From: a virus
Reading direction: 5' to 3' (one strand)
Length of the DNA: 20,539 nucleotides
Virus record (IMG/VR): IMGVR_UViG_3300008963_000046
Coordinates: 1 to 20,539 of that record
The notes beneath the pieces were generated by a model that did not search any database, had not been told where the DNA came from, and worked only from the letters and a program-made list of their open reading frames with translations. The position numbers and the translations under genes are program-made. Shown here piece after piece: positions 3 to 14,973 of the stretch. Numbering within the stretch: position 1 is the stretch's first letter; every line of letters begins with the position of its first letter.

Positions 3-422
3 AAACAAAGTGAATTTATTAAAAATAACCCAGATGTATATAAATCATTTTTTAGAAGTATTTCTAAAGAAGAAGTTTCATTTTTTAATACGATATGTAA
101 TGAAATTAATAATATTAAACATACCGAATTCATTGTTAATATACAAAAATCATTAGATTTAAACCAAGGTATCATTAAATACGATGGATCTTACAAAGAT
201 GGTAATACTTTGATTTTAATAGAATATGATGGTCTTTATTGGCATAACGAGTCATATGATGAAATTAAAGATAAAATATGCCTATCAATAAGAAATGATA
301 TTACCGGAATTATCAGAATTAGTGATGAACAATATAAATCAAATAGAAAAATAATAAAACACATACAAGATGCAATTGAAAAAATTAAAAGTAAAGAATG
401 TAACCGAGTTAAAATCTACTAA
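3..422 (+). CDS. Vsr/DUF559-like homing endonuclease, 5'-truncated
   Basis: The frame is open from the left edge to a TAA at 420-422, so the N-terminus lies outside the window; 139 codons are visible. I read a PD-(D/E)XK/Vsr-type nuclease core: a hydrophobic strand followed by I-E-Y-D-G-L-Y-W-H (Glu at 222-224, Asp at 228-230, Trp-His at 240-245), then a helix rich in D/K and a strand G-I-I-R-I-S. That is the usual end of Vsr and DUF559-like nucleases (D-G-x-x-W-H ... viRi). Related endonucleases are known to sit between the two halves of split inteins in environmental T4-like phages. The neighbour supports this role: the next ORF begins inside this one and encodes a C-terminal intein half. 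Inferred job: cutting intein-free uvsX alleles so that the locus spreads by gene conversion. It is not continuous with the intein frame, so it is probably made as a separate protein. Family placement is fairly sure; target site unknown. Confidence 0.72.
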   Translation, partial: KQSEFIKNNPDVYKSFFRSISKEEVSFFNTICNEINNIKHTEFIVNIQKSLDLNQGIIKYDGSYKDGNTLILIEYDGLYWHNESYDEIKDKICLSIRNDITGIIRISDEQYKSNRKIIKHIQDAIEKIKSKECNRVKIY

Positions 423-489
423 AGTACATGATTTAACGGTAGAAGAAGCTCAACATTATATTTCTGAAAATGGTGTAATTAACCATAAC
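370..489 (+). other. Split intein C-terminal fragment (Int-C) coding segment
   Basis: Forty codons from the ATG to the terminal Asn codon (487-489), followed by Thr (490-492). Its plan resembles the short Int-C pieces of phage split inteins such as gp41-1: Met, a basic M-x-L-K-K-x-K start, block F with D-L-T-V and a downstream His, then G-x-x-x-H-N. Penultimate His39 and terminal Asn40 are the residues needed for Asn cyclisation. No endonuclease domain is in this frame. Confidence 0.8.
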
Positions 490-936
490 ACCGGTCCAGA
501 GTACGCAGCATCAATTGTGCTTTTCTTAAACAAAGCACAACTAAAAGAAGGTGGTGAAAAGGCTGGTATTATTGTAACCGCTAAACCTAATAAGAACAGA
601 TTTGCCAAGCCAAATCCAATTAAGTTCCATCTACACTACACGGAAGGTATGAACCGTTTTGTAGGCCTAGAGAATTACGTTGACTGGGAAGATATCGGTA
701 TTACGCGCGGTAAGATAGAAAAAGGCAAAAAGATACCAAAGGCAACAGCTCGCGGTTGGATCTGTAAACACCTTGATGAAGTTGTACCTAACAATGAATT
801 CTTTACTGATAAGGTATTTACTCAAGAGGTTCTTGAGAAGATTGACAAGAAGATTTACGACCTATTTAACTATAACACAGACGTCGAGTTTAACGTAGAC
901 GATATTATGGAAAACACTCAAGAAGATGAAGATTAA
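370..936 (+). CDS. uvsX: C-terminal split intein fused to C-terminal part of UvsX recombinase
   Basis: Residues 1-40 look like a complete C-terminal intein fragment: block F V-H-D-L-T-V-E-E-A-Q-H-Y at 19-30, then block G ending G-V-I-N-H-N at 35-40, with Thr41 as the +1 nucleophile. Residues 41-188 are the RecA/UvsX C-extein. T-G-P-E-Y-A-A-S aligns with the RecA segment just after the L2 loop (G-G-N-A-L-K-F-Y-A-S) and with T4 UvsX G-G-T-G-I-Y-Y-S. K-N-R-F-A-K-P and E-G-M-N-R-F-V-G-L-E match the strand and G-I-N-x-x-G region of the fold; the tail is acidic. Trans-splicing with an upstream N-half would rebuild UvsX, the strand-exchange recombinase for recombination-dependent replication. The ATG at 370 is preceded in frame by two stops (352-357), so this is an independent start, not read-through. 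It overlaps the endonuclease ORF by 53 nt. Confidence 0.82.
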   Translation: MQLKKLKVKNVTELKSTKVHDLTVEEAQHYISENGVINHNTGPEYAASIVLFLNKAQLKEGGEKAGIIVTAKPNKNRFAKPNPIKFHLHYTEGMNRFVGLENYVDWEDIGITRGKIEKGKKIPKATARGWICKHLDEVVPNNEFFTDKVFTQEVLEKIDKKIYDLFNYNTDVEFNVDDIMENTQEDED

Positions 937-1225
937 CGAAGATAAACTACCTATTAAATATGTAATGGGTGTTGAAAAAGATCTTCCAGGCTATCCAACT
1001 TCTTTAGATGTTATATACGCACATATAAGTATGTCAGTTCGTAATCCAGATAGGTATAAGCGAACTTTTACACTACATGCCATGAAGACCTATCGTTTTC
1101 CAGAAGTTGACGAGCAACATCTGGTTAATTCAATCAACGAAGCAATAGAAGAGGGTCTGTTGGAACAAACCAATTACGAAGAGGGAAAAGAAGCCTACAA
1201 TATTCTTTTGAACCCATTTGAATAA
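926..1225 (+). CDS. Hypothetical protein, 99 aa, between uvsX and helicase
   Basis: I do not recognise this gene. It starts inside the last codons of uvsX (11-nt overlap), so translation is probably coupled. The product is mixed-charge with no membrane segment. The middle (S-L-D-V-I-Y-A-H-I-S-M-S-V) and the later L-V-N-S-I-N-E-A-I-E-E-G-L-L-E look helical and could form a small winged-helix-like fold, which is only an impression. In T4 the slot between uvsX and gene 41 is held by gene 40, but I see no sequence match to gp40, so only the position is shared. A 24-nt gap containing a GATATAACTAAA motif separates it from the helicase gene. Confidence 0.7.
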   Translation: MKINEDKLPIKYVMGVEKDLPGYPTSLDVIYAHISMSVRNPDRYKRTFTLHAMKTYRFPEVDEQHLVNSINEAIEEGLLEQTNYEEGKEAYNILLNPFE

Positions 1226-5830: not shown

Positions 5831-7183
5831 ATGCAAATTTTAGATTTTAATGGCTTTCTTAACGAAGCGCAAGTAATGAAAACCACAGGCATATTTGATG
5901 CTAAGTTAGACAAGGCCGCAGATGTTATGACCGCATATTTAAACAAGAAGACAGGTGATGATTACAAGAAATTCCCATACATCTTAGTCCATAGAATAGA
6001 TGGAGAAGAGGGCCCTGGTATTATGCTATACTCTAATAAATCTGATAAAGCTGTTAGGGTTGGAGGTCAAGGCTCAGGTCCAGGTATAGTTGGTTCTTTA
6101 ACCTTTTACTCTAAACATTATGCCAATAGAGCAGATTTTCAGATCACGTCTCAGCAGTTTCCAATTGTTAAGTTAATTGATGAGTTTGTGAGACTAATGG
6201 ATGCTAAATATGTAAAACAAATAGCAGAATCATATGACTTTATGAATGAAAAGGCTAGTGATTATGCCTTTAGTCAAAAAGAAATTAATGAAATTGAAAG
6301 CCTTCTAGGTAAGAAAATGCCAGTTACTAAAATTGCTAAAAAGATGGGCATTGAGTATAGGGCTGTTTTAAAGTTAAAGAAGAACTTAAAGTCAGGTGAG
6401 GTTAAATCAAACATGGAGGTTAAGAACGAACAGACGCTTGATGATAAAGTGAAGTTCTTAGAAGAGACTATGGAAGACATCTACCAGATCTCAAGAAAGG
6501 TTGCTGCTGGTGCATTTAACTCACTCTTTATTTCAGGTCGCGCAGGTACTGGTAAAACATACAATGTTGAAAAGGCAATGCATGACGAAGGTCTTGAAGA
6601 AGGCGATGATTGGGTGCTTGTTTCAGGTGCTGCATCACCGATTATGATGTTTAAGAATTTCTATCAGTATAGAAACAAGACACTAGTCTTTGATGATTGT
6701 GACTCTGTATTTAGAGACGAGAGCGGTCGTAACATGTTGAAAGCCGCACTTGATACAAAGGCTGTTAGAAAGATTAGCTGGATGAAGAGGTCTTCAACTG
6801 TGTTTGATCCAAAGGATTTTGAAAACAACCCAGAAGGTGAATTTAACGCACTAGAAGCAGGACTTGTACCAAACAAATTTGAATTCGCTGGTCGTGTAAT
6901 CTTCATATCTAACCTAGAGAAAGATAAAGCAGATCCAGATGGAGCAATTCGCTCTAGATCAATTCTAATTGATGTAACACCAGATGATGCTACATTAATG
7001 GAACGTATGAAGAAGCTACTACCACATTTAGAACCAACAGACATGCCACTTAATGAGAAAGAGGAGATCTATGAGTTTATGAAGAATGCAGGTGATGTTT
7101 CAATGAGAACGTTCGTAAAAGCTGCAGGTTTTAAAAGAGCAGGTCTTTCTAACTGGGAAAGAATGGCGAAGAGATACCTATAA
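5831..7183 (+). CDS. AAA+ ATPase with prohead-targeting-like N-terminus
   Basis: A 450-aa protein with three parts. Residues 1-14 (M-Q-I-L-D-F-N-G-F-L-N-E-A-Q) resemble T4 capsid-targeting sequences such as the IPIII start (M-K-T-Y-Q-E-F-I-A-E-A), with an F-L-N-E/A site suited to the gp21 protease. Residues about 25-135 are an unrecognised mixed alpha/beta domain with a Gly-rich stretch (V-G-G-Q-G-S-G-P-G). A short helix-turn-helix-like segment (about 150-185) follows. Residues about 205-450 are an AAA+ module: Walker A G-R-A-G-T-G-K-T at 236-243, Walker B T-L-V-F-D-D-C-D at 284-291, sensor-1 I-F-I-S-N at 357-361, and a probable arginine finger in A-I-R-S-R-S at 372-377. It is not gp44. It lies between the gp46/47 nuclease genes and the gp15-like tail gene. 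Role unknown: it could act on DNA or be carried in the head. Confidence 0.9.
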   Translation: MQILDFNGFLNEAQVMKTTGIFDAKLDKAADVMTAYLNKKTGDDYKKFPYILVHRIDGEEGPGIMLYSNKSDKAVRVGGQGSGPGIVGSLTFYSKHYANRADFQITSQQFPIVKLIDEFVRLMDAKYVKQIAESYDFMNEKASDYAFSQKEINEIESLLGKKMPVTKIAKKMGIEYRAVLKLKKNLKSGEVKSNMEVKNEQTLDDKVKFLEETMEDIYQISRKVAAGAFNSLFISGRAGTGKTYNVEKAMHDEGLEEGDDWVLVSGAASPIMMFKNFYQYRNKTLVFDDCDSVFRDESGRNMLKAALDTKAVRKISWMKRSSTVFDPKDFENNPEGEFNALEAGLVPNKFEFAGRVIFISNLEKDKADPDGAIRSRSILIDVTPDDATLMERMKKLLPHLEPTDMPLNEKEEIYEFMKNAGDVSMRTFVKAAGFKRAGLSNWERMAKRYL

Positions 7184-7186
7184 TAA

Positions 7187-8257
7187 ATGGCAAGTTACAA
7201 TCTAAAATACAACAAGGATGACTCGGTTATCCGACATATCATCATTGGTCTACTTGCAGATCTTAACAATAAGTTAAGCATCTCAAGGCAGCTGACTAAC
7301 GAGAATAGAGCTTTAGTAGATGTGCCTTTCTATTATGCAGTTTCGGGTGATGAAAACTTCATGCGCGATAACTTTCTTTTTAGTACACTAAACGGTGAGA
7401 ACTGTGATGTAGACCAAGATAAAGCGGATGGTAACTATGACCGAGTACCAAGGGGTATTGTTAACTTAACTTCATTCTCGATAGATCCCTCAAAGTTGGT
7501 TAATAAACGCAATCTTGGTCAATATAACAGGATTAACCCGGATGATGGCACGTTAGAGTCTTATGTAGCAGAGTTTGAAATGATTCCAGTGGTATTAGGA
7601 GTTGACATTGAAATTATAGTTTCAAGCCAGTTAGACCTCTTTAAAGTAACTGAGGCTATTATTAAGAAGATGTATAAAGCCAATTCATATCATGTTGAAG
7701 CCGGTCACTTAGAAGATGGTACATATAGAATTAGTTCTGAATATGCAATGCCAGATGATTATACAATGGAGAAGCCAATTGAATATGGCTTTGATGATAA
7801 AGGCAATCATAAAGTTACTTTTAGCCTAGAGGTAAATTCATTTATACCATCGTTTGACTTTGAAGAAGACCTTTACCAATCAATCAAGATCATCAAAACC
7901 GAAAACTGTGGTTATATTGGAAATATAGAAGACCCTAATGGTATTCTCTTTACAGAAATTAATAACTTATATTACAGTGAAGATCACCTTAAACTATGGA
8001 AGTACAACGGAGATAAATGGATATTAACACATGAAGGTCAAGATGCTATAACTAAAGCAGAAGAGACTATTTTAAACTGTAAACAGATCGGCATTGAAGA
8101 ATATGAACGTAGAATATCTAAACGCAGAAAAGCTTCTAATAGAATGACTGTAATCGGTAATTCAAGCTTAAATAGAATTAACGATAACGAAGACGGTAAA
8201 TCAGCACTAGGTGATGACTACAAAGTGATTGGTAGAGATCTTCCATTCAAAGAGTAA
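7187..8257 (+). CDS. 15: gp15-like tail sheath stabiliser / tail terminator
   Basis: A 356-aa protein whose first 225 or so residues follow the T4 gp15 pattern. An early helix I-I-I-G-L-L-A-D-L-N-N-K-L-S-I-S-R-Q-L aligns with gp15 L-M-G-D-L-F-S-N-I-Q-I-K-R-Q-L, followed by V-D-V-P-F-Y-Y-A (gp15 I-R-V-P-I-T-Y-A). Then come V-P-R-G-I-V-N-L (gp15 L-P-R-I-N-L), a Q-Y-N turn, an I-P-V-x-L-x-x-x-I-E-I strand, a helix corresponding to gp15 F-Q-I-V-E-Q-I-L, and a V-T-F-S-L-E-V-N strand (gp15 L-T-F-E-V-N). gp15 caps the tail tube and sheath and joins the tail to the neck. This copy has about 100 extra C-terminal residues, charged and helical. It begins 3 nt after the ATPase stop, so the two are co-transcribed. 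Assignment is by eye. Confidence 0.78.
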   Translation: MASYNLKYNKDDSVIRHIIIGLLADLNNKLSISRQLTNENRALVDVPFYYAVSGDENFMRDNFLFSTLNGENCDVDQDKADGNYDRVPRGIVNLTSFSIDPSKLVNKRNLGQYNRINPDDGTLESYVAEFEMIPVVLGVDIEIIVSSQLDLFKVTEAIIKKMYKANSYHVEAGHLEDGTYRISSEYAMPDDYTMEKPIEYGFDDKGNHKVTFSLEVNSFIPSFDFEEDLYQSIKIIKTENCGYIGNIEDPNGILFTEINNLYYSEDHLKLWKYNGDKWILTHEGQDAITKAEETILNCKQIGIEEYERRISKRRKASNRMTVIGNSSLNRINDNEDGKSALGDDYKVIGRDLPFKE

Positions 8258-8267
8258 ATAGAAGATA

Positions 8268-8282
8268 GATATATAATCTAAA
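8268..8282 (+). promoter_or_regulatory. GATATATAATCTAAA promoter-like motif
   Basis: One of two full 15-nt copies; the other is at 16683. It ends 20 nt before the ATG of the 390-aa unknown, in the 45-nt gap after the gp15-like gene. Confidence 0.52.
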
Positions 8283-8302
8283 CATAAAAATCAAAATACG
8301 AA

Positions 8303-9475
8303 ATGGGTAAATCAATAAAAGGCATCATTTCGCCAACTGAAAGACAAGGAGCTGGTTTTATTTTCGAAACTGCAGGTAAGCTTTTTAAAATTACAGGTAA
8401 TGTGATTGAAGACGCACATGGAGCTAGCCAAACCTTTTTAAACCTATCAAAGGCTCTAAAAACGTTTAAAGTTGACGAATCAGGCATTGAATTCAATTAC
8501 GATTTAAATAATAAGAATCAGATTGGTGAATTGAATGAAAGTAAAGCTGAAAACTACAACCAAATCTTAGACTTAAATGAAAAGGCTAATTTTTTAAAGG
8601 ATAAAATAAAGGAATTAAAATTAGCAAATAAATCCGAAGCCGTAGATGAAGCTGCTCTAGAACTTAAAAAAGTTGATGAAAATATATTATCATTAAGCAA
8701 CAAAGGTACACACGTTCGTTTTAAATACGATAAAGAACAAGATAAAACTTTTATCGGCAATAGAGAAGTTATTACCGAAGGTATTACAGAAGAAGCTTTT
8801 GCAGCCGCAATCATTAAGTATGAAGACAAAGCTCTGCTAAATCTATTTGAAAGTGCTGCTAAAAACTTTAAAATGTACAATCTCTTAGAATTCGTGACAG
8901 AGGCTAAAGATGGTGATGTTACAGTATCTGCAATGCGCACTCAAAATAGAGCATATGCATGGAGAATAAACGAAGCTAATAGAATTGGTAAGTTTATCCA
9001 GATGGAGCCACAAGATCTAGTAGATTATGTTGCAGAAGAAACCGGTGAAGATATTTCAAGCTCAGTTCAAGATCTTATCGATAATCTACAAGAAGATGTT
9101 GATAAAAGAGAGGATTCCATCTCTTTAAAAAGAGAAATGATTTCATTTTTACAAGATCAAAGGGGTAAACTTGCTGAAGCCGATAGAAATATACCAGAAA
9201 TTAAAGAAGCAGACCACTTTTTAAGCTCAGAAATTAATAGAATTACTGAGGAAATTGATGAACTTGAAGAAAAAAAGTTAACACGTAATGATGGTTATGT
9301 AGAAGGTAAGTTAAAAATAGAGTCCGGTGAGTTACCTAAAGGCACTGAGATTATGGTTGACGCAATTGAATATACACAAGCATCAAAAAACGATATTCTA
9401 ACAGTCTTTAGAGAAGATAGTCCATTAAGAATCGAAAAAAGAAAAATAGAACTTCCTAGTTCAGAAATATCATAA
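8303..9475 (+). CDS. Hypothetical 390-aa coiled-coil protein with internal cleavage-like site
   Basis: Not recognised. The N-terminal part (about 1-60) is small-residue rich; about 75-135 and 255-335 are Glu/Lys-rich helices with coiled-coil character. In the middle, residues 191-201 read M-Y-N-L-L-E-F-V-T-E-A, very like the start of phage head-targeted proteins. The M191 codon (8873-8875) is preceded by A-rich DNA, so it could be either an internal start or a protease site. The downstream half contains M-R-T-Q-N-R-A-Y-A-W-R-I-N-E and Q-D-L-V-D-Y-V. It sits between the gp15-like gene and a strong terminator, with its own GATATATAATCTAAA motif upstream, in a virion and late-gene setting. A virion or core protein is the best guess, without a family match. 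Confidence 0.85.
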   Translation: MGKSIKGIISPTERQGAGFIFETAGKLFKITGNVIEDAHGASQTFLNLSKALKTFKVDESGIEFNYDLNNKNQIGELNESKAENYNQILDLNEKANFLKDKIKELKLANKSEAVDEAALELKKVDENILSLSNKGTHVRFKYDKEQDKTFIGNREVITEGITEEAFAAAIIKYEDKALLNLFESAAKNFKMYNLLEFVTEAKDGDVTVSAMRTQNRAYAWRINEANRIGKFIQMEPQDLVDYVAEETGEDISSSVQDLIDNLQEDVDKREDSISLKREMISFLQDQRGKLAEADRNIPEIKEADHFLSSEINRITEEIDELEEKKLTRNDGYVEGKLKIESGELPKGTEIMVDAIEYTQASKNDILTVFREDSPLRIEKRKIELPSSEIS

Positions 9476-13056: not shown

Positions 13057-14973
13057 ATGAAAAAAAATAATGATTTGCTAATAGTTGAGATGTCGTCATC
13101 GACACTTAACATAGACAGAAATGAGACCAAAGATTATATACTTGAGGGTATTTTTGGTCAGATAGATCAAAAAAATAGGAACAATAGAATTTATACTGAA
13201 GATGAATACGTTCCTCAAATTGAAAAGCTTCAAGAAAAGATCAAATCTTCAAAGCTCTTGGGTGAGTTAGATCATCCAACACAGTTTGATACCTCTTTAA
13301 AAAATGTATCGCATGTAGTAGAGAATCTTTTTTATGATAAAGAATCAAAGCAGGTACGTGGTAAAATTAGACTCTTAGATACAGATGCTGGTCGTCAAGC
13401 TAAAGCACTTGTAGATGCCGGTGTACCTTTACAGATTTCTTCTAGAGCAGCAGGTGCTGTTGAATCTAATGGTAAAGTTAAGATTAAGCAATTATTTACA
13501 TATGACCTGGTTGCTGATCCTGGTTTTGAGAATGCTGAATTAAAGAGGGTTAACGAATCGTATGGATTTAGCGACGATGGTGGCATTTACATTTATGAAA
13601 TGGGCAAAGATGCTAATATCGTAGAAAGTAATTTAGAACAAGAAAATATAAATACTCAAATAAAAGAAAATAAAACAATGGCAGAATTTGTAAAAGCTGA
13701 AGACTTTAACAAGTACTCAGAGTATCTTGCTGAAGAGATTAAATCAATTAAAAAGATCATAGACGAAAAGTACGATGATAACTCTACAAATGCTGATGAA
13801 AAAATAAATAGAGTAATCGGCCATGGTGATCATCTTGCAGAAAGTATCAATAAAATTGGTGAATATGTAGGGTACTTAGCAGAAAAATTAGATGGTTCTA
13901 TACAGTATACAGAACATGTTGCTGAAAAGACAGACCAGGGTATTCAGTATTCTGAAAGTATAGCTGAGAAGTTAGACCAGAATATCCAGTATACAGAACA
14001 TGTTGCTGAAAAGACAGACCAGGGTATTCAATACTCTGAGAACATAGCTGAGAAGTTAGACCAGGGCATACAGTATACAGAACACGTTGCTGAAGGTGTT
14101 TCAAAGTTAAAAGACTTTGCTAACTATCTTGCAGAAGCACATAATAGTAACACAGAATCTGGTGAGAATATTATAGAGTATGTTAACTACCTAAAAGAAA
14201 ATATGCAGTCAGTATCAGAATATGCTGAATATATAGCTGAATCAATTAATGAAGGCTTAGTAGCTGAAGAAGGCAATGTTACTGGTGAAGAAGCTGGAAA
14301 AGAAGCAGGAGATGGTGCTGATGGTGCTGCGGCCGGTGTTGATAACCCTAAAAATGTACACTCAGAAAAAGATAAAGGTGTTAAAGAAGAAGGAGATGAT
14401 GATATGCCCGATAATACAGGTGAAGATGGCGCATTAGATCCGCTAGAGTCATATAAGAAAAAAATTACTTCTAAATTAGATAGGCTTGTTGAAAGCGCAA
14501 CTAAGGCTGAGAATGAGAACCCATCTTTCTTTAAGATAGTATCCAAATCAACTCAAGAAAAGTATAATAAATTAAATGAGGATGCTAAAACTGAGGTTAG
14601 AAATGCAGTTAGAAAAAGAGGATTTATGACTGAAGCACAAATTGCCTCTTTAATTGAAAACTCAAGCCTAATAGTAGAATCAAAAACAGCACAACCTTAT
14701 GTACTAGAGGCAATGCCTACTGAATACAAAGAGGCTTGGGATAGCCTATCTGAAGCTAAACAGAACCAAATCTTATCACAGTCAAAATACCATAAGTTAA
14801 ATACCGAATATCAGGTAGCTAACTTCTGGCAAACTAGAGACCTAAGAGAATCTGCTCCAACAATGGAAAAAGTAAGTATGGTTAAAGAGTCAAAAGAGAC
14901 TGAAGAGAACAAGGGTCTTGGTTATGATGTAACTGGTTATGCTAAAGAAATAAAAAAGAGGTTTAGTAGATAG
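13057..14973 (+). CDS. 21: Prohead protease fused to scaffold (gp21-gp22-like)
   Basis: A 638-aa protein. Residues 1-170 are the gp21 prohead protease: I-L-E-G-I-F-G-Q-I at 28-36, N-x-R-N-N-R-I-Y at 40-46, L-G-E-L-D-H-P at 68-74 (likely catalytic His73), L-Q-I-S-S-R-A-A-G at 125-133 (catalytic Ser128 or Ser129), and T-Y-D-L-V-A-D-P-G-F at 148-157. T4 gp21 is about 212 aa, so this protein is about three times as long. Residues 208-400 form helical repeats with many L/I/V-A-E triplets, including a 28-aa tandem repeat at 284-347. Residues 400-455 are acidic and Gly-rich; about 458-638 are helical. The long tail has the character and map position of gp22, the main scaffold, which is otherwise absent: gp23 follows directly. 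The protease would build the core as a fusion and then cut it up, freeing the shell for DNA. Confidence 0.88.
   Translation: MKKNNDLLIVEMSSSTLNIDRNETKDYILEGIFGQIDQKNRNNRIYTEDEYVPQIEKLQEKIKSSKLLGELDHPTQFDTSLKNVSHVVENLFYDKESKQVRGKIRLLDTDAGRQAKALVDAGVPLQISSRAAGAVESNGKVKIKQLFTYDLVADPGFENAELKRVNESYGFSDDGGIYIYEMGKDANIVESNLEQENINTQIKENKTMAEFVKAEDFNKYSEYLAEEIKSIKKIIDEKYDDNSTNADEKINRVIGHGDHLAESINKIGEYVGYLAEKLDGSIQYTEHVAEKTDQGIQYSESIAEKLDQNIQYTEHVAEKTDQGIQYSENIAEKLDQGIQYTEHVAEGVSKLKDFANYLAEAHNSNTESGENIIEYVNYLKENMQSVSEYAEYIAESINEGLVAEEGNVTGEEAGKEAGDGADGAAAGVDNPKNVHSEKDKGVKEEGDDDMPDNTGEDGALDPLESYKKKITSKLDRLVESATKAENENPSFFKIVSKSTQEKYNKLNEDAKTEVRNAVRKRGFMTEAQIASLIENSSLIVESKTAQPYVLEAMPTEYKEAWDSLSEAKQNQILSQSKYHKLNTEYQVANFWQTRDLRESAPTMEKVSMVKESKETEENKGLGYDVTGYAKEIKKRFSR
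13678..14973 (+). CDS. Possible internal scaffold start within the gp21-gp22 gene
   Basis: An in-frame ATG (Met208) follows A-rich DNA (A-A-A-A-T-A-A-A-A-C-A then ATG-GCA), much like the starts of neighbouring genes, and opens the product M-A-E-F-V-K-A-E-D-F. It lies just after the protease domain and a low-complexity Asn/Gln linker, and would yield a 431-aa scaffold without protease. The lambda C/Nu3 genes use the same in-frame nested arrangement. No direct proof is possible from sequence alone. Confidence 0.38.
   Translation: MAEFVKAEDFNKYSEYLAEEIKSIKKIIDEKYDDNSTNADEKINRVIGHGDHLAESINKIGEYVGYLAEKLDGSIQYTEHVAEKTDQGIQYSESIAEKLDQNIQYTEHVAEKTDQGIQYSENIAEKLDQGIQYTEHVAEGVSKLKDFANYLAEAHNSNTESGENIIEYVNYLKENMQSVSEYAEYIAESINEGLVAEEGNVTGEEAGKEAGDGADGAAAGVDNPKNVHSEKDKGVKEEGDDDMPDNTGEDGALDPLESYKKKITSKLDRLVESATKAENENPSFFKIVSKSTQEKYNKLNEDAKTEVRNAVRKRGFMTEAQIASLIENSSLIVESKTAQPYVLEAMPTEYKEAWDSLSEAKQNQILSQSKYHKLNTEYQVANFWQTRDLRESAPTMEKVSMVKESKETEENKGLGYDVTGYAKEIKKRFSR
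13906..14095 (+). repeat. 84-nt tandem repeat in the scaffold coding region
   Basis: Copies begin at 13906, 13990 and 14074 (exact 84-nt period; the third is partial). Each 28-aa unit is two 14-aa halves, Y-T-E-H-V-A-E-K-T-D-Q-G-I-Q and Y-S-E-S-I-A-E-K-L-D-Q-x-I-Q. Differences between copies are mainly silent. A diverged half-unit (Y-L-A-E-K-L-D-G-S-I-Q) precedes them. Confidence 0.93.

What the first reader, a model, noticed from the sequence alone, without database searches (positions are those of the whole stretch)
3..936. Fractured uvsX: split intein with an intervening Vsr-like endonuclease
Seen: an endonuclease-like ORF is followed, in a different frame, by an ORF with a complete Int-C (D-L-T-V ... 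V-I-N-H-N) joined to the UvsX C-terminal part. Known: Dassa and colleagues described fractured genes in environmental phage data, where a free-standing Vsr-like endonuclease gene sits between the two halves of a split intein. Inferred: UvsX, an essential recombinase, is assembled by protein trans-splicing in this phage. A new uvsX split intein could be an orthogonal member of the fast-splicing class.
Basis: partly seen in the sequence, partly recalled or inferred. Interest (0 to 1): 0.88.

Follow-up and report, generated by a model that had tools for sequence, protein, structure and literature searches.

The report
Recombinase gene fractured by split intein
The left end of this T4-like phage contig holds the second half of a recombinase gene (uvsX) that a mobile element has cut in two, so the two protein halves must be spliced together after translation; relatives show the whole arrangement, a known type ("fractured gene") that proves widespread at this site, including in cultured T4-like phages.

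Summary
Confirmed in substance. ORF 370-936 is a complete intein C-half (40 aa, 370-489) fused to the UvsX C-terminal region. The contig begins inside an endonuclease ORF (3-422) that overlaps the Int-C start by 53 nt in another frame. Int-N and UvsX-N lie off the contig. Every relative with the same endonuclease and enough upstream sequence shows them directly upstream, on a separate ORF that ends in a stop: L008 (73% endonuclease identity), about 20 more viral contigs, and Lak-B megaphages (TAG=Q). The site is GGG^TGPEY, aligned with RecA loop L2; close relatives (91% UvsX-C, 93-94% gp41) lack the element, so its presence is patchy. Selection on endonuclease and Int-C is purifying. The modelled endonuclease domain resembles PD-(D/E)XK/Vsr-like nucleases, but no family profile or PDB sequence match names it. 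The same site is fractured in about 20 cultured phages (Escherichia HY03, Yersinia TG1, Proteus PM2, PspYZU05), with GIY-YIG endonucleases where typed. Some contigs keep a split intein without endonuclease, a few a contiguous mini-intein, and one (L057) two split inteins, giving a three-piece UvsX. New member of a known kind; splicing and cleavage untested; the founding 2009 paper was not readable here.

The parts
3..422 (+). 3' part of the free-standing endonuclease gene, 5' end cut by the contig edge; holds the catalytic domain (D61, E74, D76, H81, D86 of the fragment = codons at about 183, 222, 228, 243, 258)
   Evidence: ORF; family alignment with invariant D-G...E-Y-D-G...H....D; AlphaFold2 model pLDDT 87.7 with PD-(D/E)XK/Vsr-like fold matches; dN/dS 0.16-0.19
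370..422 (+). 53-nt out-of-frame overlap between endonuclease 3' end and Int-C 5' end; 53 nt in most relatives, 56-62 nt in the Lak-B and L062/L069/L070 types
   Evidence: Int-C third codon positions vary less inside the overlap, 0.206, than after it, 0.367
370..489 (+). Int-C half of the split intein with its own ATG; ends in His-Asn
   Evidence: 90% identical to L008 Int-C, 88% to L067 Int-C
490..936 (+). UvsX C-extein (Thr+1 GPEYAAS...) and stop
   Evidence: 91% identical to contiguous UvsX of L002; UvsX/RecA matches for L002 in PDB
926..1225 (+). neighbouring small ORF, no family match; not part of the element
   Evidence: 74% identical in intein-less L002
1250..2566 (+). gp41 DnaB-like helicase, uninterrupted here; used as a host-lineage marker
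   Evidence: PHROG_19 E=5.6e-61; 93-94% identical to intein-less L002-L007

Best explanation
This is a fractured uvsX gene. A split intein sits at the RecA-L2-equivalent position of UvsX (GGG^TGPEY), and a free-standing endonuclease gene with an EDxHD/Vsr-like motif lies between the two intein halves. Shown: Int-C+UvsX-C, the overlapping endonuclease end, the same complete arrangement in relatives, purifying selection, and patchy presence against close relatives lacking the element. Inferred: in this phage UvsX-N-IntN lies just off the contig; the two precursors associate and splice (Cys1, terminal Asn, Thr+1) into normal UvsX; the endonuclease cuts intein-less uvsX so that the whole 1.4-kb unit is copied in by recombinational repair. 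That repair needs UvsX or RecA, so the element depends on the protein it interrupts.
For: Complete homologous loci: L008 (UvsX-N+IntN 6055-7017, endonuclease 7061-8053, IntC+UvsX-C 8001-8573), L047, L025, L052-L072, Lak-B with TAG=Q. Of the 67 loci in which both halves are visible, 63 are split and 4 contiguous; all 21 with a Vsr-like endonuclease or its remnant and an uncut Int-N region have Int-N upstream. Int-N/Int-C belong to inteins: a contiguous relative at the same site (L115) matches the gp41-1 intein structure at E=6.8e-10 and Npu DnaE at 7.2e-10. Mobility: the window's UvsX-C is 91% and gp41 94% identical to intein-less L002, while intein-bearing L008 is 67% and 71% in these but 90% in Int-C and 73% in the endonuclease; the host tree nests the window within intein-less rows at 100/99 and forces at least 4 gains or losses. 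Clean empty sites in L002, L007, L009, L022. Endonuclease fold; it aligns by profile with an endonuclease next to an interrupted gp41 in L133 (Prob 97.9, E=5.9e-13). Dependence of homing on UvsX/RecA in T4: PMC2988022.
Against: Int-N and UvsX-N of this phage are not in the record, and no overlapping contig was found. No splicing or cleavage data. No Pfam or PHROG profile and no PDB sequence match names the endonuclease, and the top PDB fold hits are PD-(D/E)XK nucleases (best E=3.7e-3), not Vsr or I-Bth0305I by name. The endonuclease/Int-C tree is too weakly supported to name a donor.
Confidence: 0.9

Rival explanations
1. An ordinary contiguous intein with a built-in endonuclease that looks split because of a sequencing or assembly frameshift.
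For: The two ORFs overlap and lie in different frames, as a frameshift would give.
Against: The same stop, separate endonuclease ORF, out-of-frame overlap and own ATG of Int-C recur in many independent contigs down to about 40% extein identity, and in Lak-B phages with another genetic code.
Confidence: 0.02
2. A decayed element: endonuclease and Int-C are remnants and this phage's UvsX is dead or supplied otherwise.
For: Int-N is not visible; in relatives L026 and L057 the endonuclease is partly deleted.
Against: dN/dS 0.05 for Int-C and 0.16-0.19 for the endonuclease; catalytic-type residues intact; UvsX-C 91% identical to contiguous relatives with dN/dS 0.04.
Confidence: 0.06
3. The gene was broken into two subunits that associate without splicing; the intein halves are vestigial.
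For: Protein splitting without splicing is known for other phage genes broken by homing endonucleases; the phages here also carry DNA polymerase in separate pieces.
Against: Splice-site residues are kept in the loci aligned: Cys1 at the Int-N start, His-Asn at the Int-C end, and Thr, Ser or Cys at +1.
Confidence: 0.03
4. A group I or II intron rather than an intein interrupts uvsX.
For: Vsr-like endonucleases also occur in introns (PMC12350094).
Against: No Rfam match in six loci; both flanks translate into intein motifs up to the exact empty-site junction.
Confidence: 0.01

Closest known systems
Fractured genes (Dassa et al. 2009, NAR 37:2560; paper not held here, known from its abstract by memory and from citations)
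   Same: Conserved DNA-metabolism gene broken by a split intein with a free-standing Vsr-like endonuclease gene in between, in phages.
   Different: Host gene is uvsX; whether uvsX was among the eight enzyme types of that paper could not be checked. The endonuclease end overlaps the Int-C start out of frame.
gp41-1 / NrdJ-1 / IMPDH-1 class of natural split inteins
   Same: Short Int-C (40 aa) and Int-N (97 aa in L008), Cys1, phage origin; a relative matches gp41-1 intein 6QAZ at E=6.8e-10.
   Different: Inserted in UvsX L2; splicing rate unknown.
EDxHD/Vsr homing endonucleases such as I-Bth0305I
   Same: E-x-D....H....D motif, C-terminal nuclease domain, N-terminal repeats (YWxxxGxSxxxA) likely to bind DNA.
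   Different: No profile-level match; not compared with I-Bth0305I directly.
Split uvsX of cultured T4-like phages (PspYZU05, HY03, TG1, PM2; annotated as two recombinase ORFs, with a homing endonuclease between in PspYZU05, HY03 and TG1)
   Same: Same uvsX insertion site and split intein where the sequence was read (PspYZU05).
   Different: Endonuclease is GIY-YIG by annotation in TG1 and by my reading in PspYZU05, where an extra 61-aa ORF follows.

Membership tests
Fractured gene (split intein with free-standing endonuclease between the halves) | Int-C fused to the C-extein with its own start codon | tested here: met
   window 370-936
Fractured gene (split intein with free-standing endonuclease between the halves) | Int-N fused to the N-extein on a separate ORF upstream | tested here: inconclusive
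   off the contig in this phage; met in all relatives with the same endonuclease that reach that far
Fractured gene (split intein with free-standing endonuclease between the halves) | Separate endonuclease ORF between the halves | tested here: met
   3-422, complete in L008 7061-8053
Intein (Hint) family | Block F/G signature with terminal His-Asn and Cys/Ser/Thr at +1 | tested here: met
   DLTV...NGVINHN^T
Intein (Hint) family | Protein splicing activity | not testable with these tools
   no biochemical data
EDxHD / Vsr-like homing endonuclease | Catalytic motif E-x-D....H....D on a PD-(D/E)XK-like fold | tested here: met
   invariant E74, D76, H81, D86 in 14 sequences; model pLDDT 87.7; viral fold matches incl. 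'DNA mismatch endonuclease' E=5.2e-5; PDB hits Bax1, McrBC
EDxHD / Vsr-like homing endonuclease | Sequence-profile match to Vsr (PF03852) or related family | tested here: not met
   no Vsr match in the window; no Pfam or PHROG family fits
EDxHD / Vsr-like homing endonuclease | Site-specific cleavage of the intein-less allele | not testable with these tools
   needs enzyme assay

The most novel reading that the evidence does not exclude
The uvsX L2 site is a hot spot where the split state is kept for its own sake: split inteins persist after the endonuclease is lost (L107, L111, L113, L119, L120), endonucleases of unrelated families occupy the same intein, and one phage (L057) builds UvsX from three pieces by two trans-splicing reactions around a 13-aa middle extein. 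Trans-splicing would then act as a step that times or limits recombinase activity, on which homing itself depends.
Probability: 0.15. Interest if true: 0.8.

Novelty: new member of a known kind. Interest (0 to 1): 0.55.

Why it matters
It supplies a set of natural split inteins at one site in a well-studied recombinase, spanning contiguous, fractured, endonuclease-free split and double-split states. That makes the origin of split inteins testable by comparison. About 20 cultured T4-like phages carry the same break, so splicing of UvsX during infection can be tested directly. The divergent Int-N/Int-C pairs (Int-N of L008 against the others: about 32-74% identity) are candidates for orthogonal protein-ligation tools.

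Tried and rejected
Exact search for an overlapping contig that extends the window upstream: none. Endonuclease against the PDB by phmmer and by two profiles: no meaningful hit. Endonuclease in the phages collection: no match. Endonuclease in bacterial genomes: pattern hits but no confirmed relative. Direct comparison with I-Bth0305I: three tries with two accession numbers given from memory failed. Founding paper by Dassa not held. Nine papers of the library hold both 'uvsX' and 'intein'; by title and abstract start none was recognisable as describing a uvsX intein, two of them were searched by term and the other seven were not opened. Co-conversion tract next to the insertion: no step in identity to either relative. 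Donor of the window's element: element tree too weak. Intron: no Rfam match. The 670-bp extra stretch in L057 was first suspected to be an intron and turned out to be a second split intein. A control element between Int-N stop and endonuclease start (hairpins in several loci) is seen but not conserved in sequence.

Full report
Observation. The record is a single virus contig of 20,539 bases. It begins inside an ORF (3-422, 139 aa). A second ORF starts at 370 in another frame and runs to 936. The second encodes 40 residues of intein C-half ending in INHN, then UvsX from Thr-Gly-Pro-Glu-Tyr. Pfam Intein_splicing matches residues 7-40 at E=6.7e-5, below its curated cut-off; PHROG_18112, a recombinase family whose profile begins with this Int-C, matches at E=3.3e-17.

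Relatives show the missing half. The best complete relative is L008: UvsX-N with Int-N (6055-7017; Cys1 after ...VAGGG), endonuclease (7061-8053), Int-C+UvsX-C (8001-8573). The window's endonuclease fragment is 73% identical to it. The same order is seen in L025, L047 and L052-L072, with the endonuclease reduced to a remnant in L057 and L068 and the upstream part cut off in L058, and in Prevotella Lak-B megaphages, whose endonuclease is open only if TAG is read as Gln. Intein-less relatives (L002-L007, L009, L022 and others) run GGG-TGPEY without a break. In the alignment to RecA structures this junction falls at ...TTTGG^NALKFY, the end of loop L2 (naming the loop is own knowledge).

Real and under selection. 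Against L008, Int-C has dN 0.053 and dS 1.05; the endonuclease fragment has dN/dS 0.19, or 0.17 outside the overlap. The out-of-frame overlap is 53 nt in most loci and 56-62 nt in four of those measured; Int-C third codon positions vary less inside it than after it (0.206 against 0.367), as dual coding would give.

The endonuclease. Fourteen relatives share D-G, E-Y-D-G, H and D residues. The modelled fragment (pLDDT 87.7) finds PD-(D/E)XK nucleases in the PDB at best E=3.7e-3, and viral proteins named DNA mismatch endonuclease and DUF559. No Pfam or PHROG family fits. It aligns by profile (E=5.9e-13) with an endonuclease ORF that follows an intein-like break in gp41 of L133. The label Vsr-like is therefore supported by motif and fold, not by a family hit. 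All 15 loci found with this endonuclease lie in uvsX.

Mobility. The window's UvsX-C is 91% and gp41 94% identical to intein-less L002. Intein-bearing L008 is 67% and 71% in these, but 90% in Int-C and 73% in the endonuclease. The host tree nests the window among intein-less rows at 100/99 and needs at least four gains or losses of the element. This favours spread by homing, though repeated loss is not excluded and the element tree is weak.

Wider picture. Among 80 loci kept by one search (212 confirmed; the query alignment consisted of split inteins, so the sample leans that way, and some contigs are near-copies), 67 show both halves: 63 split, 4 contiguous. Split ones carry a Vsr-like endonuclease (19), its remnant (2), another ORF or stretch over 450 nt (33), 160-450 nt (1) or under 160 nt (8). 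Cultured T4-like phages have the same break, annotated as two recombinase ORFs, with a homing endonuclease between them in the three regions opened (PspYZU05, HY03, TG1). L057 carries split inteins at this site and at a second site 13 residues upstream, giving three UvsX pieces; L075 combines a split and a contiguous one; L133 and L134 have the upstream site only.

Literature. In the library used, nine papers hold both 'uvsX' and 'intein'. By their titles and abstract starts none was recognisable as reporting a uvsX intein. I searched two of them by term (PMC2988022; PMC7824862) and found no uvsX intein in the passages shown; the other seven were not opened. Term searches in six other papers around split inteins, fractured genes, Vsr-like endonucleases and T4-like or huge phages gave none either. 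The founding fractured-gene paper is not held, so novelty of uvsX as a host gene is open.

Judgement. The finding is right: a fractured uvsX with a split intein and a Vsr-like endonuclease. The half that would complete it in this phage is not on the contig. It is a new member of a known kind; the graded series and the three-piece case are the more surprising parts.

Noticed in passing
L057 2212-3117, 3347-3799, 4001-4663: UvsX in three pieces: split inteins at two sites 13 aa apart, the middle piece being Int-C1, a 13-aa extein and Int-N2; seen in one contig only.
   Followed up: partly
L075 1803-4513: Split intein at the upstream uvsX site with an endonuclease-like ORF on the minus strand (3473-2649), plus a contiguous mini-intein at the downstream site.
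   Followed up: no
L107, L111, L113, L119, L120: Split uvsX inteins with no endonuclease; in L119 the Int-N stop and Int-C start overlap by 4 nt.
   Followed up: partly
L133 3772-5572; L057 4982-5674: gp41 helicase also breaks off in an intein-like start after the Walker A Lys; in L133 an EDxHD-type endonuclease ORF follows.
   Followed up: partly
L133 1729-3675; L134 1690-3657: Endonuclease fused in frame with Int-C and UvsX-C at the upstream site, Int-N on a separate ORF.
   Followed up: no
L026 7745-8050: Endonuclease reduced to its C-terminal part while the split intein is kept.
   Followed up: partly
window 13057-14973: Prohead protease domain (Peptidase_S77, E=2.4e-12) followed by a long tail with 84-bp tandem repeats (13899-14094), perhaps protease and scaffold fused.
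   Followed up: no
L008 7017-7037: Perfect GGAGGTGG/CCACCTCC hairpin between Int-N stop and endonuclease start; hairpins of other sequence in several relatives, possibly control of the endonuclease.
   Followed up: partly
L019/L021-type and L002-L024 loci upstream of uvsX: DNA polymerase encoded in separate pieces with a sliding-clamp-like ORF between in several relatives.
   Followed up: no
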